From Cymbomonas tetramitiformis (taxonomy: Eukaryota > Chlorophyta > Pyramimonadophyceae > Pyramimonadales > Pyramimonadaceae), in assembly GCA_001247695.2 (NCBI GenBank), contig LGRX02025851.1, positions 1 to 64,000 on the forward strand: a DNA stretch of 64,000 bases, given 5' to 3'. This document shows positions 12,526-61,756 of the stretch, in pieces; position 1 is the first letter of the stretch; every line of letters starts with the position of its first letter. The translations under genes and the position numbers were made by a program. Below the pieces are notes generated by a model. The model saw only the letters and a program-made list of their open reading frames with translations, was not told where the DNA came from and did no database searches.

Positions 12526-13330
12526 CTATGACGGTCCACCCCCCATGCATCTGTGAATTTGATTTGCGAGTTGCAGGCGACGATACCACACCTGTACAAG
12601 TTTTTGTCCCTGAGTTAGGGCTTCTTCAGATGTGTTTTCTCCATTAGGTTTACCATCCCAATTAGCTGAAGGTGTGAAATCTAATGGTTGGCCATTCATA
12701 TGCAAACTGAATTCGGTTTTGCATGGATGATATCTATCTTTGAAATAGTTTCTCCCGGGTAGCCAGGACTCGTGAGTTTCCAGTGATATATCCTCATGAG
12801 GATTTCCATCGTTAATGGTAGCATCATGGTCCTCTGAATTTCTTGGCATCAACTTGCAGGTTGCTACCTCTTCTACACACCGCTTGACTTGCTCTTGTTT
12901 TTCTGGATCATGGGAAGACGCATAATGCTTTGTAATCCTATCTAAGGTGTTGCTAATCCATAGTAAACTATGGCAATGGGGGGACCCTCTCATTTGAAAC
13001 TCAATGCGCCTCCACCAATCGACCACCTTACTACCAAATGGCTGGGATTTTGAATTAATGATCAGTTTTTTCCAAATACATTCTTGTTTTTTATGGAACA
13101 ACCTACACGCGAGGGCTGGATGGTCTCTTAACATTGCTGTTCTTTCAGTTTGATCATATTCTTCAGCGATGCTTTCTGCTTCAGTGATGTTCTCGTGATG
13201 GTTCTGTTGATCACGGGCTATTGTGGCGTATAGTCTATTATGATATCTATCTGCTGGCGCAAATGTTAGGAAATAGCGTAGAGCACCATTAACTTGCATC
13301 ATCTTGCTGCTTACCATTGAGAGGAGTTTG
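12526..13330 (-). pseudogene. Helitron Rep/helicase-like protein, middle part (3' of Copia insertion)
   Basis: This segment continues the Helitron protein interrupted by the Copia element. It starts at the GTTTG target duplication and reads LSMVSSKMMQVNGALRYFLTFAPADRY, broken here as LSMVSSKM and FLTFAPADRY. Then come HPALACRLFHKK and the rolling-circle motif MRGSPHCHSLLWI (family pattern RGxPHxHxLxW, the HUH metal site of Rep). The catalytic Tyr region and SF1 helicase domain, normally further downstream, are absent, and the frame ends at 12526. Helitrons transpose by rolling-circle replication; Rep nicks and joins DNA. This copy lacks the helicase and is dead. Confidence 0.8.
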
Positions 13331-13622
13331 TGCTGGATTTGGCACGCCGACAGTGTCATCATCATCTGTGTCATCACCGATACGGTTCGACTACTATGAC
13401 TTCTTCACTGTCATCAGCGCCATCTCCGATATCGACTTCGGTAGTCAGACAGTTCATAGCATCTGTCATTTCACATCTGACACCTTAGGGGCTGTCATCA
13501 CATTCTTTCGGCGGAAGCTATAACACTTCGTATTATCTTGTGTATAGCTTCACAGTTTCACGGTTGACATATGTGAGTGTTGCACTTGACTTGTAGTGCT
13601 TGACTGCGTGTTTGTTCTCACG
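13331..13622 (+). repeat. Copia 5' LTR
   Basis: Begins TGCTGGATTTGGCACGCC and ends GTTTGTTCTCACG. It matches the 3' LTR base for base as far as I can read, except for the last position. The sequence just inside (GGTTTGCGCCC) should contain the primer-binding site, but no standard initiator-Met complement was recognised. Confidence 0.93.
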
Positions 13623-35446: not shown

Positions 35447-38400
35447 TTAGCCTTCATAGGCAGCTATCATGTCTGCTGCATTGGTCAGCTCTGTGGCTTT
35501 GACCCAGGTGTCATGCTCAGGGCCGTAGCCTGCATATCGCACTAAATAGTACTTAACACCTCTAGTGATCTTATCTGAGAGTATGTGTGATATCTCAAAC
35601 AGTGGTTGCCCTTCTTCGGTGATCATCTGTGGCAGAGGCAAAGGTGCTTGGATTGAGTCATTGTACAGCTCTATTCTGGATACAGGCTGAACCGGATGGA
35701 TACGAATGTCGAGATCCCCGAAATCTAACTCATAAGCACGTCCATGGCTGAGCACTTTAGATATGATAAACGGCCCAATGTATGGCTGCTTAAAGTGTCT
35801 GCCTGCCTCTGTCAAACCAGTCCATTGAATAAACTCAGTCCGTAGAAGAACTTTCTGCCCTACTGCAAATTGTCGGGGCATGTGAGTCTTATTGAATCTG
35901 GCTCGGTTGATTTCTGCTGCTCGGGAAATGTTATCTACCGCGTTGGCATGTACAGCCGAGTACTGGTCAAAATGGTCTCGAATAGCATTCTGTATTGGAA
36001 CAGGAGCTTCTGGCGGAATAGTGATTGCCAGATCATGAGGCGAAAGTGGCTGCGCCATCGAGTCGAGATAAAATGGTGTATAACCAGTCGTAGCAGAAAC
36101 CGTGTTGTTAATTGCAAACCCCACCAGAGGCAACTTGTCCTCCCAAGAGTTGGCTGAAGTATCATTGCAACAACACCTGAGGAGAACAATACTATCTAAT
36201 CAGTTTATAAACCAGAGGATGGTGAATCATGCATCAAACAAAATGAAAGATACCTGAGGATGTCCTCAATGAAGGCATGGCTTCTCTCATTACTTGCATT
36301 CGACTGTGGATGGTGTGAAGACGTCATAGACAATCTCGTACCAGTAGATTTCCACAGTGTTTGCCAGAATGAAGAAGTAAATCTGGGGTCTCGATCTGAG
36401 ATGATGTTCCTCGGAAGACCATGGAGCTTGAAGATATGCTGCATATATATTGAAGCAGTATGCTGAGCAGTCCAGGTCATGTTGAAGGGAATGAGATGAC
36501 AGCGATGAGAGAATTGGCACATTACCACGAAAATACTGTCGTGTCCATTAGTGGTGATAGGCAGGTCAGTAATCCAGTCAAGAGATACATCAAGCCATTT
36601 TGTCTTAGGCACACAATATCGTATATGTGACTGACCATAAGGTTTGTGTCTCCTCGTTTTCTGGCGTTGACACACGGGGCACTCCCGAATGTACTGAATG
36701 GCTGCCTTCGTCATTCCTGGCCAGTAATATCGGCTACGCAATAAATGAAGCATGCGATTTTTGCCTACATGACCGGAAATAGTGGCTGAGTGGCACTCAT
36801 GAAGTAGAATGTGGCGAAGCTGAGTGATCTCACCGTCATCTGTAGGAACCTTGGCAGTAGGTGGAATGTAAAGCTGTCTGCCAAAAATGGTCTTGCGATA
36901 GATCAATCCCTGAATGAGCTCGAAATTGCTGACTGACTGTGATGATGTCGATGATGCCAGCTTAGATAATATAGTCTGTGCAAGTGTGTCACGATCATAC
37001 TGAGATATAATAATGTCGTGAAGCTGATGAGCTGATGAGGAAGATATAAGAGCAATGAATGTAGAATCTGTAGAGGGAATGTCTGTTGAATGTGATTCGC
37101 CGACGTCTATATGTTGCAGACAATCAGTGAGTTCAAAGAGTGTAGAAATACGGGTAAGTGCATCTGCAACCTTAATCTTCTCGCCAGAAATGTGCTCTAT
37201 TCGAAAGTTGTACTCGGAGAGCTCATCCAACCACCTCGCCTGTTTGGGGCTTAGTGTGGATTTGGACTGGAAATAAACCAGTGGTTGATGATCTGAGCGA
37301 ACAATAGTCTCTGGAGCTCCCAGCAAGATGTGGCGAAAGAATCGGAAGCCCTCCACAATGGCAAATAGTTCGATCTCAGGAATAGGCCAGCGTCTCTGTG
37401 TATCAGAAAGAGTGACGCTGTGATAGCCATAATATGGCTTCATACCTTTTCCTTGATCCTGCAATACTACTTGACCAACGTGTGTGCCTGATTCATCGAC
37501 CTCCATAATAGATGGCAGTTTCTGATCTGGAAGTTGTAGTACTGGAGCATGGCAGATGGCACTTTTGAGGTTATCAAATGCCTGCTGCTGCTCAGATTCC
37601 CAGACAAACTCTGCATTATCTTTAAGGAGACGATTGAGCGGCTCGGCAATCTTGGAGAACTTTGGTATAAATCTCCTGAACTGTCCGACCATGCCCAAGA
37701 ATGACCGAAGAGATGACTTGCCATCTTTAGCCATACGGCGTAGAGGCTGCTTACCAACGGTTGGACCATATGACACTGGAGGCTGGATAGCCATGACTGC
37801 ACGGATTCTGTCTTCGATGATTGATAGGCCTGCCTCAGAGATATGGTGTCCGATAAAATCGATGGATCTGACGAACAACTCAACCTTAGAAGGCCTGATG
37901 TAGAACTGATGATCTCTGCAGCGCTGTAAGAACTGTCGAACATGCTTCACGTGGCTGTCAAAATCTGGACTGTACACTATGGTGTCATCCATGAAAATGA
38001 CCAAGGACTGATCGATGAAGTCAAAGAATGCTCGATTTCCAACACGTAGAGCGGTCGCAGGAGCGTTAGTTAACCCGAAGGGCATCACTGTCCACTCGTA
38101 TGAACCATATCTAGTACGTATTGCTGTCTTATGGATGTCGTCTGGATGGATGGGTATCTGATGGAAAAACTGGTTGAAATCGAATCTGCTGAACCAGCGT
38201 GCCCCCTTAAGCTGTTCAAGAAGGGTATCATGAGGTGGCAATGGATACGTGTCCTTTATGGTGATGTTATTAAGGGCTCGATAATCACAGCACATCCTCC
38301 ACTTCCCCCCTGGCTTAGGAGCGAAAATGATTGGGCACCCATATGGTGATGATGATGGACGAAGGATACCCAGCTCGACATATTTGATGATCTGTCGTTT

Positions 38401-38742
38401 GAGCTCCTCCATCATAGGCACTGGAATGGTACGAACTGGCTGTGATGGTGGCTTATGCCCAGGTTCAATGTTGATGCGATGATATCCACCTTCAAACCGT
38501 TCTGGTCTATGGCCAGCTGGAAGATCCTCCTGGAAAATATCTGAAAAGTTTTCTCTGATTAGATCACGTGCTGCTGTGACCTTTGGGGCTTCCATGGTAG
38601 TGTCTGAGTCTGCTGCTGCCATGACCAATTCACCATCGACCTCTGAGAGAAAAAAGAGATAAGCTACGGCTTCTCCAGCCGACCCACTGGATCGTATACG
38701 TCGTAGGTGCTTCCTCATAGTGGTGGCACTGACCAATTCCAT
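35447..38742 (-). CDS. pol: Ty3/gypsy chromovirus Pol with an intron in integrase (RT-RNase H-integrase-chromodomain)
   Basis: Two exons, 38742-36254 and 36176-35447, joined over a 77-bp GT..AG intron to give 1072 residues. RT carries the active site FMDD (VIFMDDTIVYS), a variant of YxDD. RNase H has the DALTR end. Integrase has an HHCC module (HECHSATISGH, CPVCQRQ) and a DDE triad in SLDWITDLP, ISDRDPRF and NASNERSHAF. Exon 2 restores CCCNDTSANSWEDKLPLVGFA, the usual WEDxLPLvefaiN block, written here in parts: NSWEDKLPLVGFA. A chromodomain (HILSDK, YYLVRYAGY, DTWVKATEL) ends the protein and would target integration to marked chromatin. Gag and protease are missing upstream; the 5' boundary is near 38760. 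The copy is otherwise intact. Confidence 0.9.
36177..36253 (-). other. 77-bp spliceosomal intron inside chromovirus integrase
   Basis: Donor CTCAG|GTATCT and acceptor CTCCTCAG|GTGTT on the minus strand. Unspliced, it brings a stop and a frameshift. Spliced, the integrase frame continues exactly into its expected next block. TCCTCAGGT occurs at both boundaries as a 9-bp direct repeat. Confidence 0.8.
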
Positions 38743-39681: not shown

Positions 39682-41502
39682 GACAATTGCGACAGCGTTT
39701 CGCAGTCATGTGCTGGCTGTCTTTGGGGCGCCAGCCGAATGCTTGGTGGATGGAGGCAAGGAGTTCGAGGGCGAGTTTGAGCAGCTATGCAGGGATTGCC
39801 TGATAGACAGGAGGGTCACCTCACCAGACTCACCAGAAGGCAATGGGCTCACTGAGCGAGTAGTACGCACGATGAAGTTCTGCTTCAAGAAGCTCGCCTT
39901 GGAGAAGGGCCTCGACTACGAGTGGGACGAACAACTCTGGCCATTGGTGCTGAGTTCCAATGCAGCACGCCAAGAGTCCACAGGAGTGGCACCGTTCACC
40001 CTACTGTTTGCCCAGGAGGCAATGGTGCCGCCAGCATAAGGAACCTTATGATCTGAAGCAGGCGCCTAGCATGAACTTCAGTCCGGAGGTCAGTGACGAC
40101 AAGGACACCCGAGTCAAGGACCTTCTGCAGAGAGCACAGGTGGTGAGGCGGCTGATGGTGCATGCTGGCTGCAGTCTGGAGATCGCGCAGCACCGTGACA
40201 CTTTACACTATGAAGGAAGAAGGGGTGGTGGTTACGAGTCTAAGCCACATCAGTTCAAGGTGGGGGACTTCGTGTACATCAGATAGAAGCCCCGCAGTGG
40301 CATGGAGGTCGGCACCAAGTCCGCCATCCTCAAGCTGGTCAAGATACAGCGAGATGGTGTTGTGGTGCTCGAGGACGCCACCAAGATGAAAGAGAAGAGC
40401 ACTGTGCAGAGCATTGCACCGTGTCACCTACAGGTGAAGGATCAGTACGACTGCAGTGCAGCCGTGCCCAGCAGACATCTTGCATGCGAGGTGTGCAGGA
40501 AGGCTGATGGAGAAGCAGAGATGTTGTTGTGCGATACGTGCAACAAGGGGTACCATTTGTGGTGTCTTACCCCAGCACTGGATGAGGTACCAGAAGGCGA
40601 GTGGCTATGTCCTAGGTGCTCAGACACGAGGATGCAAGCTGCTAATGCTGAGGTGCAGACCCAGGAAACTAAGGGCTCTTGCGTCTTGGAGGACAGATTG
40701 GGGATGAAGGAGCAGCAATTGAACGAGAAGCTGTCCCCAGACATGCGCCTGCTGCCAGCGGACGTGGGTCCCCGTCGCGTGGTGAAGGGAGGTAATTTCC
40801 AGCCATGGCAGGCTATCTCGTCAAGGGAGATGATGCTGGAAGAGAAGGACCTGTTCCTTTACATGCCAGACCAGGTAGACTGGGGCAGACAGGACAAGCT
40901 CTCAGAGGCCGTGAAGATCTTCATGCCTGTGCATTGGAACGAGGGGCACCGCACCGTGCTGAGCAAGAAGTATCGAGAGCAGAAAGCGATGGCGAGGCAA
41001 CTGAGGGATGCACCTCTAGTGCCTGCCTTGGCTGAAGAAGAGATTGAAAAGCGAGGAGAATTAAGACATATGACCAGGGCCCAGGTGCGCGAGGCTAGCG
41101 CGCTACAGTGGGGACTTGAGCTTGTCATCACGGTGCCCTCTGAGGTGAGACGCCTGGCTACAGAGGTGGACTGGAAGTCCATCGATGGCGTGTGGGACCC
41201 ATGGGCAGGTACTGGGGTCATCAGTGAGGTGATGGTGGAGCAATGGCCACAAGTGAGATTTATGAACAATGATTGGAACCCTCAGCTGGGTTGGTCTGAG
41301 GCGCGTGATGCACTTCAGCCAGGTAACTATCGCATATGGAAGGAGAAGTATGGTGTCTGTGACGCTGTGGTGACCTCTCCTTGGTTCGCTGCGTTGGATA
41401 TCGCGTTTCCATTGGCAGTTATGGCCAGTCGCGTGGTGGCACGTGTGCATGCATGTTCCCTCTTATTATCTGACAGACATGACCGAGAGCAGAGCCGCGT
41501 AC
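39682..41502 (+). pseudogene. Gypsy methyltransferase/PHD family, second copy: integrase end, PHD finger, methyltransferase-like domain
   Basis: Starts within integrase (LVDGGKEFEG, then NGLTERVV) and is colinear with 49320-51080. A 16-bp inverted-repeat insertion at 40035-40050 breaks the frame. Then come the SH3-like integrase tail (HQFKVGDFVYIR), an in-frame TAG at 40285-40287 where the other copy has CAG, and the PHD finger (about 40480-40622). The methyltransferase-like domain follows: WDPWAGTGVISEV near 41190 as SAM-binding motif I, and VVTSPWFAALD near 41368 as the catalytic-type SPW block. Unlike the 44-51 kb copy, this domain is intact up to a 4-bp CATG insertion near 41445. The copy then ends at a junction with a different gypsy family. 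Confidence 0.8.
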
Positions 41503-42923
41503 CATCACAGCCAGTTCGTACCATTCCAGTGCCTATGATGGAGGAGCTCAAACGACAGATCATCAAATATGTCGAGCTGGGTATCCTTCGTCCGTCATCA
41601 TCACCATATGGATGTCCGATCATTTTCGCTCCTAAGCCAGGGGGGAAGTGGAGGATGTGCTGTGATTATCGAGCCCTTAATAACATCACTATAAAGGACA
41701 CGTATCCATTGCCACCTCACGACACCCTTCTTGAACAACTTAAAGGTGCACGATGGTTTAGCAGATTTGACTTCAATCAGTTCTTCCATCAGATTCATAT
41801 ACACCCAGATGACATTCACAAAACAGCAATACGTACCAGATACGGTTCATATGAGTGGACAGTGATGCCTTTCGGGTTAACTAACGCTCCTGCGACCGCT
41901 CCACGTGTTGGAAATCGAGCATTCTTTGACTTCATCGATCAGTTCTTGGTCATTTTCATGGATGACACCATAGTGTACAGTCCAGATTTTGACAGCCACG
42001 TGAAGCATGTTCGACAGTTCTTACAACGCTGCAGAGATCATCAGTTCTACATCAGGCCTTCTAAGGTTGAGTTGTTCGTCAAATCCATCGATTTTATCGG
42101 ACACCATATCTCTGAGGCAGGCCTATCCATCATCGAAGACAGAATCCGTGCAGTCATGGCTATCCAGCCTCCAGTGTCGTATGGTCCAACCGTTGGTAAA
42201 CAGCCTCTACGCCGTATGGCTAAAGATGGCAAGTCATCTCTTCGGTCATTCTTGGGCATGGTCGACCAGTTTAGGAGATTCATACCAAAGTTCTCCAAGA
42301 TTGCTGAGCCGCTCAATCGTCTCCTTAAAGATAATGCAGAGTTTGTCTGGGAATCTGAGCAGCAGCAGGCATTTGATAACCTCAAAAGTGCCATCTGCCA
42401 TGCTCCAGTACTACAGCTTCCAGATCAGAAACTGCCATCTATTATGGAGGTCGATGGATCAGGCACACACGTTGGTCAAGTGGTATTACAGGATCAAGGA
42501 AAAGGTATGAAGCCATGTGGCTATCACAGCGTCACTCTTTCTGATACACAGAGACGCTGGCCTATTCCTGAGATCGAGCTATTTGCCATTGTGGAGGGCT
42601 TCCGATTCTTTCGCCACATCTTGCTGGGAGCTCCTGAGACTATTGTTCGCTCAGATCATCAGCCACTGGTTTATTTCCGGTCCAAATCCACACTAAGCCC
42701 CAAACAGGCGAGGTGGTTGGATGAGCTCTCTGAGTACAACTTCCGAATAGAGCACATTTCTGGCGAGAAGAATAAGGTTGTCAGGGTTATGACCGATGAC
42801 ATATGTGTCATACATGTCATACGTGCCATACCTATCATACATGTCATACCATGTCATGTTATGTCATGTCGTGTCATGTCATATATTATAATGACAGACA
42901 GTCGTCAGTACGGTCGACTATGA
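40302..42923 (+). CDS. Chimeric 873-codon frame: PHD, methyltransferase-like, chromovirus RT and RNase H
   Basis: The first ~400 codons are the PHD and methyltransferase-like part of the first gypsy family. The rest, from about 41503, is the chromovirus RT/RNase H (VIFMDD, RSDHQPLVYF), almost identical to 36.2-38.4 kb. The two pieces share one open frame because a 4-bp CATG duplication near 41445 shifts the first part into phase with the second. The last ~50 codons (from 42779) are LTR sequence read by accident. Whether it is ever expressed is unknown. A structural recombination product is the simplest reading. Confidence 0.75.
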   Translation: MEVGTKSAILKLVKIQRDGVVVLEDATKMKEKSTVQSIAPCHLQVKDQYDCSAAVPSRHLACEVCRKADGEAEMLLCDTCNKGYHLWCLTPALDEVPEGEWLCPRCSDTRMQAANAEVQTQETKGSCVLEDRLGMKEQQLNEKLSPDMRLLPADVGPRRVVKGGNFQPWQAISSREMMLEEKDLFLYMPDQVDWGRQDKLSEAVKIFMPVHWNEGHRTVLSKKYREQKAMARQLRDAPLVPALAEEEIEKRGELRHMTRAQVREASALQWGLELVITVPSEVRRLATEVDWKSIDGVWDPWAGTGVISEVMVEQWPQVRFMNNDWNPQLGWSEARDALQPGNYRIWKEKYGVCDAVVTSPWFAALDIAFPLAVMASRVVARVHACSLLLSDRHDREQSRVPSQPVRTIPVPMMEELKRQIIKYVELGILRPSSSPYGCPIIFAPKPGGKWRMCCDYRALNNITIKDTYPLPPHDTLLEQLKGARWFSRFDFNQFFHQIHIHPDDIHKTAIRTRYGSYEWTVMPFGLTNAPATAPRVGNRAFFDFIDQFLVIFMDDTIVYSPDFDSHVKHVRQFLQRCRDHQFYIRPSKVELFVKSIDFIGHHISEAGLSIIEDRIRAVMAIQPPVSYGPTVGKQPLRRMAKDGKSSLRSFLGMVDQFRRFIPKFSKIAEPLNRLLKDNAEFVWESEQQQAFDNLKSAICHAPVLQLPDQKLPSIMEVDGSGTHVGQVVLQDQGKGMKPCGYHSVTLSDTQRRWPIPEIELFAIVEGFRFFRHILLGAPETIVRSDHQPLVYFRSKSTLSPKQARWLDELSEYNFRIEHISGEKNKVVRVMTDDICVIHVIRAIPIIHVIPCHVMSCRVMSYIIMTDSRQYGRL

Positions 42924-44186
42924 CATTAAGAGTGGTATTCTTTGACTCGTCAAGGCGACGAACGAGGACGCATCAAGTGTGAGTGCAGCAGTAGAGATAT
43001 TGTATTTTGTGTGTGCAGGTTCGCGGATCGCGTATATCATACAGGCGCCGCAGTCGCACATATCAACATATCTCGCATAATATCAACCGCTGCGGAATAA
43101 ACAGCGAAAGCAGTGCGCGAGGAGACATCGTCGCAATAGCATTGTTCGCACATACACCGTCAGTGGATAACAGCGCGACAAGGTGTGCATACAGCATGCG
43201 GATCGCACATATGCGCAGCTATCATTCGCAAAATTGTAAGATATGCGACAAGCTGACGCGAATATGATCAAATCATCAACAGAATATGATCCATGCGAGA
43301 AATGGCATTCGTATCATATGCCGTACATACTGCGACAGAGATATGCTCACCATTCGCAGCGCGCACATCAGCGATTCATCAAAGTCGCAATAAATTGCCC
43401 ATTAGCGCTATATCGCTCAGTGCAGTTTTGATGCGTACACTGATCTCGTCATCAAAATATCGTCATTTCAAATGGTTGCAAAAATCACTCATCTGCGCGC
43501 ATCATGATTTACTTTGACAGGATATGTACATACCTGCTAGATTTATCATGAACAGATGACGCGCGATGATGGTATAATGTGCAGCATGCTATACTAAGTC
43601 TGTGATGCTTGCACATAAGAGATGGTATTATCCATTCACTGTCAGATTCACACACATAGTATGACATCAGATAAGTTGTTGCTGTGCAGCAAATATCATA
43701 GAGTGTGCAGTAAATTTCATAGTGTGTACAATTAAATGGTGTGCAGTACTTACAATACATGCAGCACCACACACACACTTGCAGTATATACTATTCATTC
43801 AGTATATACCAAGTGCACGCAGCAAGATGTACCATGCATTATTATACTGTGCAACTATATCATGCAGTTTGATTCTACTTTGTTATACAGTGACATGTGC
43901 ATGCATTTATGCAGCCAGCTTGATCACGATAGCAGCTGGCATGCATAAACCAGCTTGACCACGATAGCAGCTGGCATGTATGGTCTCATATAACAATGCA
44001 TCAGACATTGCACATAGCATACCTGCTGTGCATGTAAACTATAAATGAACCCACATGGTGTAAGGTGCCTCTTCATGGTCTTAACACAATAATTAGCTCA
44101 GTATACCCTGACGCAAGATTTGGGATGGGTATACTGTTCTATTGTGGATCACTGAAAGGAATGCTCACCGGAACCATGTGTGAAAT
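42779..44186 (+). repeat. TGTCAGGG-family LTR-type repeat, 1.4 kb
   Basis: Starts TGTCAGGGTTATGACCGATG and cuts off the chromovirus RNase H. It is colinear with 59837-61756, including TTATA..ACCAGCTTG, GCATCAGACA, ACACAATAATTAGCTC and GGATCACTGAAAGGA. It lacks about 450 bp near 42925 that the other copy has. The shared part ends TGTGAAAT at 44186, where the methyltransferase-type gypsy begins. No coding frame. Confidence 0.75.
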
Positions 44187-45040
44187 TCTCGTTTGCAGGC
44201 AGTGCAGTGGTTTGGTGGTGGCTGGGACGAGGCCCCATGCCCATGGTCGCCGTTTGGGCGATGTTTGAAACAGTGGCGTGGCGCCTGTCGTGGTGCCCCT
44301 TTCAGGTCTGGTGGGGGCGCTGCGTGGCCTCGCTTTGGGACTCGCTGCCGATATGGTGGTCGATTGCTCGACGTTATCCCCGTCGTGCATGCTATGACGT
44401 TTGGGTCCTGTGGGCCCTCGCTTATGTCTGGTACGTTGGGCTCCTTATCGTACGCACCACAGGTGTCTATGCTGGCGTACACCGTGTTCGTACAGAAGGT
44501 TGGATGGTGGTACCCCTTCGGGGGGTGGTCGTTTCCCTGGCGTGCTGGTCGCAGTGTGCCGCAGCCCTTCTCCTCGTGGTCCTCGCCTGGCTCTGGGTCT
44601 GCGCTGGCGTTTATGCGGAGGATGGGGCGCACCACGCTTCTTGTGCCGTGGGTGTCCCTCTGGGCGTATGTGACGTCCGAGATCGCCGGGGGTGGACTGT
44701 CCCATCCTTGCGCTGGTCCCAAGTTTTCTTGCTGGGCCGCGTGCACCTGCCCGCTTTTCCGGCCAGGTTGGATAAGCCTCGCTTTGCAGCGCGTTGGGCG
44801 CAGCTTCGGCGGAATCTCCAGCTTCATCGTGTCGCGCAGGCCGCTCACCTAGTGATTGTCCTTGCGCTGGTGGTCTCCACTGCTGCTGGTGGGAGTTCTC
44901 GCTTGGCGCTCGGGGGGTGGAGATTAGTGGCGTGCTTCTTCGCCTCGAACTCGCCGGTAGCCGCAGTGCGGTTCAACAGAATTTTGCGATTTTTTCTGCT
45001 TTTGTGCGGAATCCTGTGGGTTGCTGGCGAGTTGACGGAG
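44187..45040 (+). other. GC-rich leader of the gypsy element, open in three frames
   Basis: Two plus-strand frames and one minus-strand frame are open for over 200 codons here. The plus frame continuous with pol is Trp/Val/Leu-rich and looks membrane-like. None resembles Gag or protease. Composition may explain the openness. The likely pol start is the ATG at 45044, or the frame may enter from upstream. Confidence 0.4.
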
Positions 45041-45043
45041 AAC

Positions 45044-47230
45044 ATGCCTGCGCATGGCGTCATGTCACCCACGCGGAGTGCCTGGAGTGCGTCACCCTGC
45101 ACTTCTTGGGAGGCTCAGCAATCGTCGAGGCAATGGGAGCCGGGTTGGCAGGCCAATGTCGCGGAGCAGGATGAGGTCTTGCCGTATACCGTGCTGGACG
45201 AGCTTCAACCTCTGGGTGACACGACTGTGACCAAGGACGAGGCAGCGTGGCTCGACACTGAGCTCAATGCCACGTTTGGAGGACATCCCGACTTCAAGGA
45301 GGAGCACTGGGAGGAAATGCGAGCTGTTCTTCGCAGATGCAAGAGCACTTTCGCCAACAGCCCTCACGACCTGACAGGCTACAAGGGCAAGGCGGAGCAC
45401 AACACGTTCTCCATCCCTTTTGTGGACGAGTCCAAGGCTGCTTACCAGAGACCCAGGAAGTACAGCCCGGGCGAACAGGAGATCATTGACATCCACTGCA
45501 AGGAATTGCTGGAGTACGGCTTCATAGAGCCTGCAGCCAAGCATTGCAGACATGCGAGCAACGTCGTCGTGGCCGGCAAGAAGGATCATGAGACTGGCCT
45601 GTGGACCCAAACGCGCTTCTGCGTGGATCTCAGGGGCGTCAATCGACACTCCCTCAAGGACAACACTCTGCCACATCGACCAGAGGAGCTCTACCAGAAG
45701 GTTGCGAAGGCCAAGTTCAAGACCACGCTGGATGCCACCAAAGCCTTCCATCAGATTCCCATGGCTACGGAAGAGGACAGGAGCAAGACGGCATTCTGGT
45801 GGAAGAACCAGTTGTACCAGTACACTTCGATGCCCTTTGGGGCTGCTGGAGCAACATCTGCGTTTGTGAGAATCATGGACTACGAGTTACGTCACCTGCA
45901 GCATTGCACGGTGGCATACGTCGATGACGTAGTGGTCTACACTGACTCCACGCCTGAGCAACATCTGAAGGACGTCGAGGACGTGTTGCGCACGTTGGGG
46001 GACGCTGGCATAAGACTGCACGCAGGCAAGAGCACCTTTGGGGCAGCTACGGTGGACTTTCTGGGTTACCGCATTGGGCATAACTCCATTGGCGCACAGG
46101 AAGCGAAGTGCAAGGCCATCCAGGAGCTTCCGAGGCCGCAGGACAAGACTGGGCTTCGTTCCATCTTGGGCATGATGAATTACTATAAGGGCTTGGTGGG
46201 TGAGCCAGGGGGGCCGAATTACTCCGAGATGGCCCGCCCTCTCAACGACCTGCTCAAGAAAGAGATTACCGATATCAAGGGAGCTTGGGGGAAGGATCAA
46301 GATCAAGCGCTTCAGGACCTGAAGGACGCGCTCTGCTCTGGGAGATGTCTGAGGCCTATCGATTACGACAGACCCCTCATATTGTACACCGATTGGAGCA
46401 CCTATGGCATTGGCGCAGTGCTGGGCCAGAAGGATGACGATGGGAAGGAGTACATCTGCATGGCAATCAGTCGATCCTTGAGCAAGACAGAGAGGCAGTA
46501 CGCCAGCTTCAAAGGTGAGATGCTTGCAGTGGTGTGGGCAGTGCGCACGCTGAGGCAGTATTTACATGGCATTCACTTCACGCTGGTGACTGACCACTCA
46601 CCGCTCACTACCTTGATGGAGAAGGCTGATCTTCAGGGACAGCACCTGCGCTGGGCAATCAGCTTGCAGGAGTTCGACTTCACGGTGCAGTATCGCCCAG
46701 GAGCCAAGAACAGCAACGCTGACGTGCCGTCTCGTTACCCGCTACCGTCTACGGCAGACGAGACTGGGGCAAGGCATGAGAGGGAAAAGGTGACTGCGCT
46801 CCACGCAGGCGTGGGGGAAGTTTGCACGAAGGACTTCTGCGACTACCTGTGCTTTATGTTGGCTGGGGATGTTTCCCCAGGGGAAGAGGCCACGCCAGAG
46901 GTGCAGGTTGCCAACTACTGCAAGAGGGCTGCCGTGGAGCAGCTGGGCACGGGACCAGTGCATCGTTTATTTGATTTGCACCACCAGGAGGAATTGGAGT
47001 GCAATCATGGGGACATGTTCGACACAGACCTACCCGAGCTGGTGACCGACTCTGGGAGGCTAGCGAGGGCGGCTTGGAAAGCGCTGAGCCTGGTGCGACC
47101 TACACGAGGCACGCATGGCGAAGGAAGCCCCGCTGTATACAGCAATGAGTACTTTGAAGGCGAACGCATCTTGAAGCCCGAGAAGGTGGACACCAGGGTG
47201 CTGGGCAGGCAGTTCTTCTCGCAAGCTCGA
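45044..47230 (+). CDS. pol: Gypsy reverse transcriptase and RNase H
   Basis: The frame from ATG 45044 contains the RT entry (RFCVDLRGVNRHS), TTLDATKAFHQIPM, the active site YVDD at 45917-45928 (AYVDDVVVYT), LGYRIGHN and the SILGMMNYYKGL thumb region. RNase H follows with LYTDWSTYGIGAVL, GEMLAVVWAV, VTDHSPLTTL and the closing NADVPSRYP. All expected residues of an active enzyme are visible. About 150 residues of linker then lead into the methyltransferase in the same frame. Confidence 0.9.
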
Positions 47231-48010
47231 GAGGAAGGCGTGGTGTGCTATGAGCCATGTGGAGGCCTCTGTGCTGGCCTGGAGATGTTGCTCCGCAATG
47301 GCATGAAGGTGGATCGGTACCTGTACCAGGACATATCACCGAGCAGTCGGACAGTGGCCAGAGCCAGGTGCACGGCGTTGCTGCGACGATATCCTGACCT
47401 CATCTCACCCAGTGCAATAGAATTTGGGGCCTTACCCCAAGATCTGCACGACACGACGAGCGCCGATTTCATACGGGCAGGAGCTCTTCAAGGACGCCAG
47501 TGGGTCATGGTGTGCGGGTTTCCATGCCAGGATCTCTCCCCTGCTGGAACGCTTACAGGCCTGGATGGCAGGCACAACAAATTATTTTATGAAGTGGTTC
47601 GGCTTCTGTCCACGCTGCAGCAGCTACAGTAGCAGAGGCCCCCAGGATACATCCTGGAGAACGTGTCCCCATTGTCGCACAGACCCGGGACCAAGATCAG
47701 GGACGAGGTGTTCCCGTACATTGCCAGCGTCATTGGCCGACCAGTGTCCTTTGACGCAGCACAAGCAGGCGCTTACGCACATCGATTGCGAGCGTACTGG
47801 AGTAACTTGTTCCAGATCCACCAGTTTCGCTCCGTGATGGGCAAGGTGGCGAGACCAGAAGGACGAGTTGTATCGTCAATCCTGTGCAAGGGCTGGCAGC
47901 CCAGACCAGTGATAAGAACAGACCGCGCGCCTCACTACGTGGTGAACGTGGTGGGAGAACCGCTGAGGGCTCTTCCCACCATCATGGCAACGCAAGGGTC
48001 GAGAGCATTC
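47231..48010 (+). pseudogene. C5 cytosine DNA methyltransferase domain inside gypsy Pol, one in-frame TAG
   Basis: Motif I-like CYEPCGGLCAGLEML starts near 47240, followed by YQDISPSS. Motif IV is CGFPCQDLSPAG, with catalytic Cys in PCQ at 47522-47530. GLDGRHNKLFYEVVRLL follows and motif VI ENV is at 47657-47665. A motif VIII-like segment AGAYAHRLRAYW is near 47760. TAG at 47630-47632 falls between motifs IV and VI in the context CTA CAG TAG CAG; the frame is otherwise continuous from RT to integrase. The domain would methylate C5 of cytosine. Retroelement-borne methyltransferases are known from dinoflagellates and charophytes, so the idea has precedent. Here the position is between RNase H and integrase. 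Confidence 0.85.
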
Positions 48011-48508
48011 AGAAGAGCAAGAATGGGCACCGTGGTGCGCAACCATGACGATGAGGACACTGAGGAAGAATCCCGAGAAGTGAACCTCGACGAGAAGGCG
48101 CGAGCCATGGGCTATAGCGCAAGTGAGCTACGCATGGCTGATGGCCTGAACGACGTAGAATTGGCGAGCATTCTGGGCCTGGCCATGGATCGCAGGGCTA
48201 TGGAACTGCTGATGGCAGTCGCAGAAGCAAGCAGGAAGGGGCTTCCTCACAGCGAAGAGTCCCCAGAGGCGGAGAATTCCCCAGGACAGCCTATCGTTGT
48301 AGACAACAACTGGGCAGACCACGCGAGGTCGGACCTTCAGCAGAGACAAGCTTTGATGGCGGAATGGGTTGAGAATTCGAACGCATATACTCAGCAGGTG
48401 GCGAAGACCATGAGCCACCGTGACTGGGAAGAGAAGCTGCAGATAATGTGCTCACAAGGGCAGAAAGGTGCAGAAGGAATTGGGGCTCAGCGGCAGAAGG
48501 CTGGAACC

Positions 48509-48571
48509 AAGAAGAAGAAGAAGAAGAAGAAGAAGAAGAAGAAGAAGAAGAAGAAGAAGAAGAAGAAGAAG
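48509..48571 (+). repeat. (AAG)21 trinucleotide run coding for polylysine
   Basis: Twenty-one AAG codons in the pol frame lie in the linker between methyltransferase and integrase. The purity of the run points to replication slippage. A long Lys run would be expected to slow or disturb translation. Confidence 0.95.
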
Positions 48572-48879
48572 GAGTGGCAGCTCTACGCCATCGAGCAGTA
48601 TCGCCAGAGGCACGAGAGCCACTTCGTGAAGGAGGGCGCAACTCCAGCAGCGCGCGTTGACGTGCCTGCTTGGAGTCCGCCTGGCAAAGATGCGGAGATG
48701 AGACTCCCCAGGTTGGCGTGTACCACTAGATTCGTGGACTTGATGGCCAGTGTGGCTGAACAGCAGGCCGACCGTGACAAGCATCGAGATGTGCATGACG
48801 ATGCATGGTGCCTCAGATGGTTGAAGTCCAATGGCAGCGTGAGATTGCCAGAGGATGAAGTTCGTCGTGTAAGGAGACG

Positions 48880-49744
48880 TGCAGCACGACATCGATGGGA
48901 TGAGGCTACGGACGAGATCTACATGATCACGCTGTCGGGCAAGGAGGTGAGAATACCCAAGCCTGCTGACCGTCTTGCATTGGTCAAGGAATACCACTCC
49001 AGAACTGGCCATTGGGGGATAAGACGTACGCAGCATCTTCTGTGGCAGCGCCATTGGTGGGCCGACTTGAAGAAGGACGTGGAGGCTGTGGTTACTCAGT
49101 GTGAGACTTGCCAGCGCGTGAAGACCCACTACGCAAGAGAGGAGGCGTGTTTGTCCCCCCTCGAGATCGTGTCGTTCATGTATCGCTGGTCGCTAGACTT
49201 GGCATGGCCTTCGAGGAGGGAGACCAAGGCTGGCAACAACAGGGTGCTCATCATGACCGAGCACTACACCAGATTCATAGTCTGTGTACCTATTCCCAAC
49301 AAGGAGGCAAGGACCATCGCGGCGGCATTTCGCAGTCATGTCCTGGCTGTGTTCGGTGCGCCAGCAGAGTGCTTGGTGGATGGAGGCAAGGAGTTCGAGG
49401 GTGAGTTCGAGCAGCTATGCAGAGACTGTCTGATAGACAGACGAGTCACCTCGCCAGACTCTCCAGAAGGCAACGGGCTCACCGAGCGAGTGGTGCGTAC
49501 AATGAAGTTTTGCTTCAAGAAGATCGCCTTGGAGAAGGGCCTCGACTATGAGTGGGATGAACAGCTCTGGCCGCTCGTGCTGAGCTACAATGCAGCACGC
49601 CAAGAGTCCACAGGAGTGGCGCCGTTCACCTTGCTGTTTGCCCAAGAAGCAGTGGTGCCGCCAGATCTGAAGCAAGCGCCCAGCATGGATTCAGTCCAGA
49701 GGTCAAAGATGACAAGGACGCCCGAGTCAAGGACCTCCTCCTGA
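48880..49744 (+). CDS. Gypsy integrase, C-terminus frameshifted
   Basis: The zinc module is YHSRTGHWGIRRTQH followed by CETCQRVK. The core has D in WSLDLAW, D in LVDGGKEFEG (about 49375) and E in NGLTERVVRTMK (about 49480), a complete DDE triad. After AQEAVVPPDLKQAPSM the frame loses one base near 49686 compared with the 39.7-kb copy (ATGGATTCAG versus ATGAACTTCAG). It stops at 49744, while the true continuation is in the next frame. Integrase inserts the cDNA into the genome. Confidence 0.88.
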
Positions 49745-50817
49745 GAGCACAGGTAGTGAGGCGACTGATGGTGCACGCTGGCTGCAGCCTGGAGGTTGCA
49801 CAGCATCGTGATACTTTACATTATGAAGGAAGAAGGGGTGGGGGCATTGAGCCTAAGCCACACCAGTTTAAAGTGGGTGACTTCGTCTACATCAGACAGA
49901 AGCCTCGCAGCGGCATGGAAGTCGCGACCAAGTCCGCCATTCTGAAGCTGGTCAAGATACAGCGAGATGGTGTTGTGGTGCTTGAGGACGCCACCAAGTT
50001 AAGGGAAAAGAGCACTGTGCAGAGCATCGCGCCATGTCACCTGCAGGTGAAGGACCAGTATGACTGCAGTGCAGCCGTGCCCAGCAGACACCTTGCATGT
50101 GAAGTGTGCAGGAAGACTGATGGGGAAGCAGAGATGTTGTTGTGCGACGCGTGCAACAAGGGGTACCATTTGTGGTGTCTTACCCCAGCATTGGATGAAG
50201 TACCAGAAGGCGAGTGGCTATGTCCTAGGTGCTCAGGCACGAGGATGCAAGCTGCTAGCGCTGAGGTACAGACCCAGGAAACCAAGAGTTCTTGTGTCCT
50301 GGAGGACAGATTGGGGATGAAGGAGCAGCAATTGAATGAGAAGCTGTCCTCAGACATGCGCCTGCTGCCAGCAGACGTGGGTCCCCGTCGTGTGGTGAAG
50401 GGAGACAGATTTCAGCCATGGCATGCTATCTCATCAAGGGAGATGCTATTGGAGGAGAAGGACATGTTCCTCTGCGTGCCAGATCAGATTGATTGGGGTA
50501 GACAGGACAAACTCTCCGAGGCTGTGCAGATCTTCATGCCAGGGCACTGGAATGAGGGCCATCGCACCGTGCCGAGCAAGAAGTACCGGGAACAGAAAGC
50601 AATGGCAAGGCAACTGAGGGATGCACCTCTCGTGCCTGCTTTGGCTGAAGAAAAAGTTGAAAAACGAGGAGAATTGAGACATATGACTAAGGCTCAGGTG
50701 CGCGAAGCTAGCGCACTGCAGTGGGGGCTTGAGCTGGTCATCACGGTGCCTTCCGAGGTGAGGCGCTTGGCGACAGAAGTGGACTGGAAGTCCATCGATG
50801 GCGTGTGGGACCCATAG
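49745..50817 (+). CDS. Integrase tail, PHD finger and linker of the gypsy Pol
   Basis: Begins with the SH3-like integrase tail (HQFKVGDFVYIRQKPRSG, then VKIQRDGVVVLEDATK). A complete C4-H-C3 PHD finger follows at about 50095-50235: CEVC, LLCDACNKGYHLWC, and WLCPRC, with the expected spacing and the Trp before the last pair. PHD fingers read histone H3 tails, so it could steer integration or recruit the complex to marked chromatin, much as the chromodomain does in chromoviruses; that role is inference. A ~190-residue linker leads to the methyltransferase-like domain, cut by TAG at 50815-50817, where the other copy has TGG (in WDPWAG). Confidence 0.88.
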
Positions 50818-51340
50818 GCAGGTACGTGGGGTCATCAGTGAGGTGATGGTGGAGCAATGGCCGCAATTGAGATTTATGAATAATGACTGGAATTCTCAGC
50901 TGGGTTGGTCTGAGGCGCATGACGCACTTCAGCCAGGTAACTATCGCATATGGAAGGAGAAGTATGGTGTCTGTGATGCCGTGGTGACTTCACCCTGGTT
51001 TGCAGCGCTGGATATCGCGTTTCCATTGGCAGTTATGGCCAGTCGTGTGGTGGCATGTGTCCATGTTCCTTTTTACTATTTGACAGACATGACCGAGAGC
51101 AGAGCTGCGTACTTCAGACGATTGAGTTAGTCTGGACGCTTGCATGTGATTGGACATCTAGAACATGGACCTATTGGCCGCAGATGCATGTGGGTTTTGG
51201 TGTTCAAGAACCCTCTGGTCAGAGCCAGGATGTTACAGGATGGAGAAGGTGAAGGCATTGGTATGTTCACTTTCAGTTTGGGCAAGTTCATGGCGGATGG
51301 TGATACGACCCAGTATGCTGAACAAGCCCACATTTGAGTC
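50818..51340 (+). pseudogene. Second methyltransferase-like domain, broken
   Basis: Continues after the TAG. One extra base (ACGTGGGG versus ACTGGGG) shifts the frame, which then runs through MNNDWNSQLGW, YGVCDAVVTSPWFAALD, PLAVMASRVVA and ESRAAYFRRLS. A TAG at 51127-51129 follows, and then SGRLHVIGHL, RCMWVLVFKN to 51337. Motif I (DPWAGTG, seen in the other copy), the TSPW block and the closing 'GRL..RC.WlvFK' pattern resemble phage-like DNA N6-adenine methyltransferases. The substrate is not proven. It is distinct from the upstream C5 enzyme. Dead in this copy. Confidence 0.65.
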
Positions 51341-51361
51341 TGTGCTACGGCAGGCAGCAGC

Positions 51362-52276
51362 TACAGATGGGGGATGTTGGAAATCTGGGCTTGCATATAA
51401 GAGCTTAGCGTTCGATCTCAGAATATCAGAATTTCAAAAATTTTGTAGCTCTACGATCTTGTGCTGTGTTAACACTTAAAGGGCGAATCGATGTAATAAT
51501 GCTCATACTGATATTGTTTTCAGGTTGGTGTCGCATACGTTTTGGGGCATATCTCGCGTTCTACTTATCCATTCGTGCCCCTACTTCGCGTGCCTAACAA
51601 AGCACACACGCCGAACTATCTACTTCACATCACGGCTTACACCTAGAGCACGCGAGCATACATGTATGCCGCTAGGTTGTAGTGCATACACGCATTCCTC
51701 CCTACCCTTTAGTATAGGGCACTCATACCCCTGCACTTTCCAATTAGTTTTTTGCTCAATATATTGAGTTTGGTGGCCTTTACGGGGTTGGGGGACCTTG
51801 CTCAACTCACAAATATGGATACCAATACTTCATACATCTCAAGTAGGTGACTAACGTAGAAGTTATGGCACTTTCCGCGCTCATACTGATCCTATACTGC
51901 AAAATCTGAATTCGCCCTTTAAGTGTTAAGACCGCCCTGGATGATTGCCGACACAAGTGAATGTTAAGAACGAGTTTATGTCCCGCGAGTGTTAAGATTG
52001 CTCGGACCCGATGTATTCGTACCATCATGTGCACGCGTTTGCGACAAGCTACAGATGGGGGATGTTAGAAATTTGGGCTTGTATATAAGAGCTTGGCATG
52101 TGATCTCAGAATTTCAAATTTTTTGTAGCTCTACGATCGTGTGTTGTGTTAAGATATGCCTGGATTATTACCGACACATGTGAATGTTAAAGATAAGTTG
52201 GATACATACGCGCGAGTGTCGAGGTTGCTCAGGGCTAGCAGTATTTGTCCCATCATATGCACGCGTTTGCGACAAC
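51362..52276. repeat. Tandem LTR-like repeat, ~230-bp units, first unit interrupted
   Basis: Each unit runs from CTACAGATGGGGGATGTT through ATATAAGAGCTT and TTTGTAGCTCTACGATC to CACGCGTTTGCGACAA. Unit 1 is 51362-51480 plus 51919-52047; unit 2 is 52048-52276. ATATAAGAG is TATA-like. It follows the gypsy element directly and may belong to its 3' LTR. Confidence 0.7.
51481..51918. mobile_element. TTAA-flanked non-autonomous element, ~438 bp
   Basis: The ends are GGGCGAAT and ATTCGCCC (inverted). TTAA lies at 51477-51480 and, one base off the right end, at 51919-51922. Removal restores continuity of the surrounding repeat unit. It is a second, different piggyBac-type (or other TTAA-specific) element in the window. 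No transposase. Confidence 0.65.
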
Positions 52277-59836: not shown

Positions 59837-61756
59837 TGTCAGGGTTATGACCGATGACATATGTGTCATACATGTCATACCTGTCATACCTGTCATACAT
59901 GTCATACCATGTCATGTCATGTCATGTCATATATTATTATGACAGTCGGTCGTGTCATATATTATTATGACAGTCGACAGTATGGTCGATCATGACTGTA
60001 CAGGTCGAGTCGCGTCATACATTTATGACAGTCGTCAGTACGGTCGACGATGACTGTACATGTCGCCAGATGATTATGTCATATCATCAGGCATCCCTGT
60101 CATCGAGAGTTCGTATGATTGAACTCGAAGATGGCAAAGCAAAGATACATCTTGGAAACAAACCAAGAACCATCTTTAGCTTTCAGCATGCGCGGAACTC
60201 GCATGTGCAGCATGAACGAACTAGTCGTTATTACCATGCTGGTCGTTCAACCTACGTCTCGGGTTCACAACCCAATGGCGGTACCATCTAAGATGATGGG
60301 TGACGTAGGTATAAAAGTGAGGAAGCGTTGTGCTTCAGCAGATCTTCTACGGAGACTGCACTCACAAAATTCCGCTTATACGTACACTTGCATTGCTGTT
60401 CAACTTTGCAGTGTTACTTTTGTATATTGATAATATATCGCGGCGCTTGTATGTTTAGCCGTAACAATGGTATTCTAAACTCGTCAAGGCACGAACACGA
60501 GAACTCAAGTGAGTGCAGCGTTAGATATTGTATATATCACATTGTTCGCAGGTTGCAGGTTCGCGCATACAAGCAACAGCGCTCGCAGTTATACTGAATA
60601 TCTGCAAACCGAATAATAAATACGCTCGAATATCGACAGCATACGGATTGCGCGAGGATTGATCATCGCGAACATATCCGCAGCTGACAGCATTCGCAGA
60701 GAAATCGTCTTAATACTATAAGCGACAAGGTGTGCGCACAGTATACGGATCGTATACATATGATGTCAAAATTCGCAGGATTGTCACGGTATGCGAGATG
60801 CAGATGCGCTAGTGAAAAATGACCGTCAGTACGTATGATTCGCATCAGCTGCGAATGGACGTACGAAATTTCGTTAAACAGCGCGATCGCATTCATTTAT
60901 GCGACAATACACCGGCGACAATGAGATACTTTGTGAAATAATTGGCAACATCGATTTTCGCAAATGATCTGCTTGAATCGTATACAATAATCCGCTCGTA
61001 CGATGATTTTTAGCTCGTCAGCGCGATGTGCACCTGTCATGATTTCATCGGATGCAATAAACGCACGATTTTAGGGCGCATGATTCCTGATGTATCTACA
61101 TGCAGCGAGACATTCATTTGTCTACAGTGTCCGCCATCCGTACATATGCCATGTTGCGCGCGTCAATATCCTCTGCAGAATAATTGTATACTCGCAGGGA
61201 TATTTTGGATGGATGCATGACGGACACATGATTACTATACTGCAGCATTTTACACCACATATTGATGACTGCAGAAATATTTCAAACCGTCAGCATTTGT
61301 ATGCTTATTGCAATATAGTGTGCAAAAGATGTATATACCGAGTTTGCAATGATTGCATTATATACCAACATGCAGCACATGAGTATATGCAGCACACACC
61401 AGCATGCAGCACGCACCAACATGCAGCATTACACCATGTATACATTCTATACTGAGTGACTGCAATATTGTAAGTTGTGTATGCATCACGTTAGCAGATG
61501 TTATGTATAAACCAGCTTGATCACGTTAGCAGCTGGAATATGTGACATTATATTACAATGCATCAGACATGCACATAAGCATACTTGCTGTGCATGTTAA
61601 CTATATTCGAACCCATATAGTGTAAGGTGCCTATTCAATGATCTCAACACAATAATTAGCTCGTTATGACCCGGTGGAGTCGAGATACTCTTCGGACCAC
61701 ATATCGTTCTATTGTGGATCACTGAAAGGATTGCTCACCGGAACTATATGTGAAAT
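59837..61756 (+). repeat. TGTCAGGG-family LTR-type repeat, 1.9 kb
   Basis: Starts TGTCAGGGTTATGACCGATG with an array of TGTCATAC units, contains GGTATAAAAGTGAGG (TATA-like, 60308) and AGACTGCACTCA, and ends TGTGAAAT. It is colinear with 42779-44186 and, over its first ~600 bp, with the solo repeat at 33829-34396. Inserted next to the virus-like cluster. No coding frame. Confidence 0.75.

What the first reader, a model, noticed from the sequence alone, without database searches (positions are those of the whole stretch)
44187..51340. Gypsy polyprotein carrying C5 DNA methyltransferase, PHD finger and a second methyltransferase-like domain
Seen: one near-continuous frame with RT (YVDD), RNase H, PCQ/ENV cytosine methyltransferase and DDE integrase, then a C4HC3 PHD finger and a DPWAGTG/TSPW domain. 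Known: retroelements with C5 methyltransferases occur in dinoflagellates and charophytes, and chromoviruses use chromodomains to target insertion. I know of no described element with a PHD reader plus two different methyltransferase modules. Inference: the element may read host chromatin and write methyl marks on its own DNA to control silencing or target choice.
Basis: partly seen in the sequence, partly recalled or inferred. Interest (0 to 1): 0.88.

Follow-up and report, generated by a model that had tools for sequence, protein, structure and literature searches.

The report
Retrotransposon carrying cytosine methyltransferase and PHD finger
A many-copy jumping element in the genome of what looks like a green-type alga makes one giant protein that copies and inserts it and also holds a DNA-methylating-type enzyme, a histone-reader-type finger and a third conserved part that looks methyltransferase-like, so it may mark its own DNA and choose where it lands.

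Summary
The domains are real, but the window copy is dead: cut off at 44187 and broken by stops and frame changes. A second 3' fragment lies at 39682-41502. Four other loci of the same genome hold one 2,398-residue open frame: RT, RNase H, DNMT3-like methyltransferase, integrase, PHD finger and the DPWAGTG/TSPWF domain (for L009). So the domains belong together and are no capture seen only here. Each part is under purifying selection; PHD and last domain clearly more than the linkers, the DNMT only a little more. The element has DIRS-like split repeats (A-coding-B-A-B), yet 2 of 3 copies with both ends read show 4-bp target duplications, as a DDE integrase would leave. Closest known: KnitGypsy-Dnmt3 of a charophyte (PMC5890265). 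The PHD, where chromoviruses carry a chromodomain, and the last domain are not in the text I read; that paper's figures and supplements were not seen. That the last domain is a methyltransferase rests on motif order alone; no search matched it. The host has green-type light-harvesting genes; its lineage is open, charophyte included. Verdict: real, selected, new variant of a known kind.

The parts
44187..51374 (+). 5'-truncated, broken copy of the element's pol region (no gag-pro, no 5' repeat)
45647..46075 (+). reverse transcriptase (RVT_1; YVDD at 45917)
46286..46675 (+). RNase H (PF17919/PF17917)
47240..48200 (+). DNMT3-like C5 methyltransferase (PCQ 47522, LENV 47654), with a stop at 47630; outer limits approximate, by comparison with L009
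48962..49126 (+). integrase zinc-binding domain H2C2
49184..49465 (+). integrase core (rve); LTERVVR, with the likely catalytic glutamate, at 49478
50098..50232 (+). PHD finger, C4HC3, after the integrase C-terminal region
   Evidence: E 6.3e-13; for the same finger in L009
50524..51337 (+). C-terminal DPWAGTG/TSPWF domain, broken here (stop at 50815 inside motif I, frame change after it, stop near 51130)
51364..51374 (+). purine-rich run before the 3' repeats (possible primer of plus-strand synthesis)
51375..52152 (+). degenerate 3' repeat region: the start of repeat B (51376-51472) occurs again at 52064-52152 (82%), as in the B-A-B tails of better copies
39682..41502 (+). second, 3'-terminal fragment of the same family (integrase end, PHD, DPWAG at 41196, TSPWF at 41373); 88% identical to 49312-51112; then runs into an unrelated Gypsy fragment

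Best explanation
It is a dead copy of a high-copy Ty3/Gypsy-type retroelement; the one copy read from end to end in pieces (C1905) spans about 15.5 kb. Shown: better copies have a gag-pro frame and an overlapping pol frame encoding RT, RNase H, a DNMT3-like C5 methyltransferase, H2C2/DDE integrase, PHD finger and a conserved C-terminal domain; split repeats A-coding-B-A-B; ends TGTC...GACA; 4-bp target duplications in 2 of 3 copies; purifying selection on each domain. Inferred: the methyltransferase travels with RT and integrase and methylates CG sites of the new cDNA before or at insertion, so that the new copy is handled like host DNA. The PHD, fixed to the integrase tail where chromoviruses carry a chromodomain, binds the histone H3 tail and biases where the integrase inserts. 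The last domain has the motif order of an amino-methyltransferase (DPWAGTG, then NNDWN, then TSPWF) and most likely adds a second methyl mark, or has become a binding module of that fold.
For: Open 2,398-residue frames at L009-L012; the 3' flanks of L009, L010 and L012 differ (L011 ends with its contig). RT, both DNMT motifs, integrase and DPWAG in one frame in 6 of the 7 loci fetched because their frames were long; integrase and DPWAG in one frame in 25 of 37 loci, the window's own fragment among the 37 (L045 and L046 hold other pieces and are left out). Pfam on L009 pol (its rve hit, E 1e-6, is below the curated cut-off). DNMT3A is the nearest solved relative of the methyltransferase, E 2.9e-5; the best bacterial enzyme has 0.005. 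PHD nearest CHD4, MLL3/4, KDM5, WSTF and BAZ2. pN/pS within subfamily A: RT+RNase H 0.08, integrase 0.09, DNMT 0.16, PHD 0.06, last-domain core 0.05, three linkers 0.18-0.23; between subfamilies 0.15, 0.23, 0.30, 0.24, 0.16 against linkers 0.39-0.49. Ends and duplications. B-A-B tails at 40 of 40 scored places of 1,762 candidates (the query spans the junction, which favours this). That the DNMT3 of another such element (SymbioDIRS-Dnmt3) methylates CG is from PMC5890265 (section 11).
Against: No biochemical or methylation data. The last domain has no detectable relative; a one-sequence model of the window fragment was useless (mean pLDDT 33.7). Its motif IV is TSPWF, not the usual (D/N/S)PP(Y/F/W) (recalled). 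One of three copies (C1237) shows no target duplication. The DNMT is little more constrained than the linkers: between subfamilies pN 0.222 (0.185-0.261) against 0.295 (0.247-0.348) for the linker before it, and within subfamily A pN/pS 0.16 against 0.18. Synonymous change between subfamilies is saturated, and in one pair the RNase H ratio is above 1 on very few changes. The within-family loci were chosen for open frames, which favours constraint. Zinc ligands do not prove histone binding.
Confidence: 0.6

Rival explanations
1. The C-terminal domain is not a working methyltransferase: it is a degenerate or unrelated nucleotide-binding module kept as a structural, DNA-binding or integrase-partner part.
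For: No supporting hit in Pfam, NCBIfam, PHROGs, phages, PDB, viral or prokaryotic contigs; motif IV lacks the second proline (pattern recalled).
Against: Motif I, an acidic residue at the expected end of the second strand, and TSPWF are unchanged in the 8 sequences aligned (L009, L012, L016, L031, L032, L041, L047 and the window fragment). The core has the lowest or near-lowest pN/pS of the accessory parts (0.05 within, 0.16 between subfamilies).
Confidence: 0.35
2. The PHD and last domain are host genes caught next to one dead element, not parts of it.
For: In the window copy the frame is broken before and after the PHD.
Against: Uninterrupted integrase-to-DPWAG frames in 25 of 37 loci; 96 further copies of the stretch, 89-96% identical, scored of 6,478 candidates; two subfamilies share it.
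Confidence: 0.02
3. It is the already described KnitGypsy-Dnmt3 family or a close kin of it in another green alga, whose figure may show the PHD and last domain without the text naming them; little is new.
For: Same class, DNMT3 in pol, and the same DIRS-like repeat layout (PMC5890265, sections 6 and 9). The host has chlorophyll a/b-type light-harvesting proteins, so a charophyte is possible.
Against: [quoted passage not shown] Figures and supplements could not be seen, and no KnitGypsy sequence was at hand.
Confidence: 0.27
4. The methyltransferase acts on the element's RNA or on host DNA, not on its own cDNA.
For: The paper suggests RNA methylation for SymbioLINE-Dnmt, whose tested enzyme did not methylate DNA in yeast (PMC5890265, section 11).
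Against: Here the nearest solved relative is DNMT3A, a DNA enzyme, and the domain sits in pol between RNase H and integrase.
Confidence: 0.25

Closest known systems
KnitGypsy-Dnmt3 (Klebsormidium nitens; de Mendoza et al. 2018, PMC5890265)
   Same: Gypsy domain make-up, intronless DNMT3 in pol, purifying selection on it, DIRS-like arrangement of repeats (sections 6 and 9 read)
   Different: PHD finger and C-terminal domain not mentioned in the text read; figures and supplement not seen, sequence not compared
SymbioDIRS-Dnmt3 (Symbiodinium; PMC5890265)
   Same: DNMT3 in the pol frame, A-coding-B-A-B repeats
   Different: has a tyrosine recombinase; ours has an H2C2/DDE integrase and 4-bp target duplications in 2 of 3 copies
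Chromoviruses (Ty3/Gypsy with integrase chromodomain; recalled)
   Same: a histone-reader-type domain fused to the integrase C-terminus
   Different: PHD finger instead of chromodomain; plus DNMT and last domain
DIRS elements with Dam-like adenine methyltransferase (named in PMC5890265, section 6)
   Same: a retroelement with a possible amino-methyltransferase, and split repeats
   Different: no tyrosine recombinase hit here; no Dam-family hit for the last domain

Membership tests
Ty3/Gypsy LTR retrotransposon | pol order RT, RNase H, integrase with H2C2 and DDE core | tested here: met
   (a DNMT lies between RNase H and integrase; rve in L009 below cut-off, in the window above it)
Ty3/Gypsy LTR retrotransposon | aspartic protease upstream of RT | tested here: inconclusive
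   LLDTGANCN in the gag-pro frame; Pfam hits E 0.009-0.018, below cut-off
Ty3/Gypsy LTR retrotransposon | two identical terminal LTRs | tested here: not met
   5' end is A only, 3' end B-A-B; so a Gypsy-type pol with split repeats, not a standard LTR element
Ty3/Gypsy LTR retrotransposon | short target-site duplication, TG...CA ends | tested here: met
   CCCT at C1905, TGCT at C24244, none at C1237: 2 of 3 copies; ends TGTC...GACA
Chromovirus | chromodomain after the integrase | tested here: not met
   PHD in that place; no chromodomain hit up to E 0.1 or E 1
DIRS-like | split or inverted terminal repeats | tested here: met
DIRS-like | tyrosine recombinase | tested here: not met
   none in the gag-pro pieces or pol by Pfam up to E 1; genome search for PF00589 not answered
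KnitGypsy-Dnmt3 | DNMT3 in a Gypsy pol frame with DIRS-like repeats | tested here: met
KnitGypsy-Dnmt3 | common descent with the Klebsormidium family | not tested
   its sequence was not at hand; protein database switched off
DNMT3 | motifs PCQ, ENV and the motif AHR-R--W-NL shared with DNMT3A | tested here: met
   alignment to DNMT3A covers these stretches (DNMT3A has PCN at the first); Pfam 1.7e-10; no tree made
PHD finger | C4HC3 zinc ligands | tested here: met
   Pfam 1.2e-10 in L009, 6.3e-13 in the window; solved relatives
N6-adenine / N4-cytosine DNA methyltransferase | sequence or structural relationship to a known family | tested here: not met
   no supporting hit; structure model failed
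N6-adenine / N4-cytosine DNA methyltransferase | motif I then motif IV in amino-methyltransferase order | tested here: inconclusive
   DPWAGTG ... NNDWN ... TSPWF unchanged in the 8 sequences aligned; motif IV departs from the recalled pattern

The most novel reading that the evidence does not exclude
A retroelement of a green-type alga has built a reader-plus-two-writers kit into its integrase polyprotein: the PHD picks chromatin by the state of the H3 tail, the DNMT3-like enzyme writes 5mC on the new copy, and a methyltransferase of a family not yet described writes a second mark.
Probability: 0.28. Interest if true: 0.88.

Novelty: new variant of a known kind. Interest (0 to 1): 0.7.

Why it matters
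The paper read describes SymbioLINE-Dnmt, two forms of SymbioDIRS-Dnmt3 and KnitGypsy-Dnmt3 (PMC5890265, sections 6 and 9). This element adds, as far as that text goes, a PHD on the integrase and a selected domain with no relative found, and it is present in many near-identical copies. It makes two open questions testable in one system: why retroelements carry DNA methyltransferases, and whether a chromatin reader fused to integrase steers insertion. [quoted passage not shown] here one travels with a PHD in the same polyprotein.

Tried and rejected
Capture of host genes beside one dead copy: rejected by open frames elsewhere. Tyrosine-recombinase DIRS element: no recombinase hit and target duplications in 2 of 3 copies. 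Peridinin dinoflagellate host: spliced-leader 21-mer absent from the 305 kb then held (a weak test), no PCP match (no control rang), chlorophyll a/b-type light-harvesting protein. RuBisCO search: three weak fragments; the frame I looked at does not read like RuBisCO. Slippery site between gag-pro and pol: none of the canonical kind seen by eye in the overlap (sequence). Viral origin of the methyltransferase: no relative in viral contigs by the patterns used. MT-A70 for the last domain: motif order is wrong (recalled). Structure of the last domain: useless without relatives, so no fold search was run. Of five further contigs tried for both ends, C24244 gave both, C20827 both with a break inside A, C10495 the 3' end only, C163 and C23738 none at the places guessed.
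Full report
1. What is in the window. Pfam finds RT, RNase H, the N-part of a C5 methyltransferase, integrase zinc finger and core, and a PHD finger in order between 45647 and 50232. The copy begins abruptly at 44187, where a repeat also found at 61485-61756 ends; no gag or 5' repeat of the element was matched before it. It is broken by a stop at 47630 between the PCQ and ENV motifs, a frame change near 49690, a stop at 50815 inside the DPWAGTG motif with a frame change after it, and a stop near 51130. A second fragment, 39682-41502, is 88% identical to 49312-51112 and keeps DPWAG and TSPWF, but its last 80 or so residues are lost and the frame runs on into an unrelated Gypsy RT.

2. Other copies. 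The window lies in an 852-Mb, 25,745-contig assembly. DNA_methylase gives 124 matches, which include other methyltransferase genes as well as this element. The PHD-plus-domain stretch gives 97 matches: the window's own and 96 others of 89-96% identity, scored of 6,478 candidates. Both are lower bounds by the tool's statement. Four loci, L009-L012, have the same 2,398-residue open frame; L009 and L010 were read in full and L009 scanned with Pfam. L013 (2,242 residues) stops inside the last domain and L014 (2,161) runs off its contig. L047 (2,122 residues) represents the window's subfamily, whose members are 68-70% identical to L009 in the last domain. By motif patterns, RT, PCQ, ENV, integrase and DPWAG stand in one frame in 6 of the 7 loci picked for long frames (L014 is the exception), and integrase with DPWAG in 25 of 37 loci. 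The strict PHD pattern misses L010, where the finger is plainly present. L036 and L037 may be assembly duplicates.

3. Upstream frame. In C1905 a gag-pro frame of about 2,130 residues (two adjoining pieces, L045 from 1063 and L009 to 1458) carries LLDTGANCN, a protease-like motif with sub-threshold Pfam hits. The pol frame opens at L009:1371 and overlaps it by some 87 bases in another frame.

4. Ends. The 3' end of L009, L010 and L012 is B-A-B: a 225-bp repeat, about 386 bp, then the 225-bp repeat again. The 5' end is A alone, preceded by other DNA, at C1905, C1237 and C24244; C1905 thus spans about 15.5 kb. In the window's subfamily 13 of 18 loci with a readable junction show a repeat of about 220 bp some 750 bp on, one more shows 36 bp of it, four do not (32 loci examined, 14 lacked the junction string). 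A search with the junction gave 40 scored places of 1,762 candidates, 98-100% identical, each with both flanking B parts, though the query favours such places. In the six 3' ends of the first block and the ten of the window's subfamily printed, the end is GCGACA, except ACGACA in L034, followed by differing DNA. With ends TGTCAC and GCGACA, 4-bp duplications are seen at C1905 (CCCT) and C24244 (TGCT) and none at C1237. The B|A junction reads GACAGCTGTC, a perfect palindrome, in L009 and L010; L012 and the window's subfamily differ from it by one base. I infer insertion by the integrase of a DNA that had passed through joined ends; the route is open. The two B copies within an element are 99.6% identical in L010 and 97.3% in L012, so these insertions look young.

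5. Selection. Between subfamilies pN/pS is 0.15 for RT+RNase H, 0.23 integrase, 0.30 DNMT, 0.24 PHD, 0.28 last domain (0.16 its core), against 0.39-0.49 for three linkers; synonymous sites are saturated. Within subfamily A (six loci, all pairs) the values are 0.08, 0.09, 0.16, 0.06, 0.11 (0.05), linkers 0.18-0.23. The DNMT is thus only slightly more constrained than the linkers, and its interval overlaps that of the linker before it. In one pair (L009, L012) RNase H has a ratio above 1 on very few changes. The loci were chosen for long frames. The PHD and the core of the last domain are kept about as tightly as RT and integrase.

6. Domains. The methyltransferase's nearest solved relatives are DNMT3A (E 2.9e-5) and DNMT3B, then bacterial enzymes (0.005 and up); the alignment covers the PCQ and ENV stretches and AHR-R--W-NL. 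The PHD's nearest are CHD4, MLL3/4, KDM5, WSTF and BAZ2; several of these bind the unmodified H3 tail (recalled). It follows the integrase C-terminal region, the place of the chromodomain in chromoviruses (recalled). The last domain, about 265 residues, has DPWAGTG, NNDWN and TSPWF unchanged in the 8 sequences aligned, the order of amino-methyltransferases (recalled), but no search found a relative, and the structure model failed. Calling it a methyltransferase is inference.

7. Host. No PCP match (no control rang). Chlorophyll-binding light-harvesting proteins gave 78 matches. One of them, L062, scores best per stretch against green LHCII chains (289 bits), ahead of LHC polyprotein chains of PDB 9vfj (at most 204 bits per repeat; their totals, 379 and 322, are sums). 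So the host has a green-type (chlorophyll a/b) antenna, judged from one protein; whether it is a chlorophyte, a charophyte or an alga with a secondary green plastid is open.

8. Literature. Searches answered. Read: PMC5890265 abstract, sections 6, 9 and 11 in full, and passages; passages only of PMC6338049, PMC12344493, PMC11453091 and PMC9998398. What I read does not describe a PHD or a second methyltransferase-like domain in a DNMT-bearing retroelement. Figures, supplements and most subscription papers were not seen. KnitGypsy-Dnmt3 is the closest: Gypsy pol, DNMT3, DIRS-like repeats. The 2025 paper (PMC12344493) speaks of LTR Copia and DIRS elements in streptophytes and dinoflagellates, the 2018 paper of Gypsy in the charophyte.

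9. Mechanism. Shown: anatomy, copy number, selection, ends, target duplications. From the literature: the DNMT3 of SymbioDIRS-Dnmt3 methylates CG sites (PMC5890265, section 11). Inferred: methylation of the new cDNA by the DNMT; insertion bias by the PHD; a second mark, or a binding role, for the last domain.

Noticed in passing
L007, L008 and hits C8, C6, C2041, C154, C16883: A second set of at least seven full-length intronless DNMT frames of 383-401 residues. In L007 and L008 a similar neighbour protein lies beside the DNMT, and L007 also has a peptidase M24. Looks like a repeated island, perhaps of endogenous DNA-virus origin; no relative in viral contigs by the patterns used.
   Followed up: partly
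L009 pol residues 1-290; window 44180-45050: The pol frame begins with a hydrophobic stretch: membrane-span-like windows at 204-233 and 254-280 in L009 and near 73-92, 115-148, 215-244 and 265-286 in the window copy; 107 of 1000 shuffled controls had any such window. Weakly conserved (38% over the 48 residues compared); no PDB relative.
   Followed up: partly
window 48509-48571: A run of 21 lysines between DNMT and integrase in the window copy, 7 in L047, none in L009: a codon-repeat expansion in one subfamily.
   Followed up: partly
window 17512-21912: A 1,466-residue Copia-type pol frame (RVT_2, rve, SH3).
   Followed up: no
window 12526-13377: Helitron-like N-terminal domain on the minus strand.
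   Followed up: no
window 5068-6042: Minus-strand frame matching Herpes_ori_bp (origin-binding protein), E 1e-6.
   Followed up: no
window 37164-38449 and 41501-42784: Two inverted pieces of another Gypsy element, 95.6% identical over 1,287 bases.
   Followed up: no
window 2597-3589: Direct repeat of 588 bases, 98% identical, the two copies overlapping.
   Followed up: no
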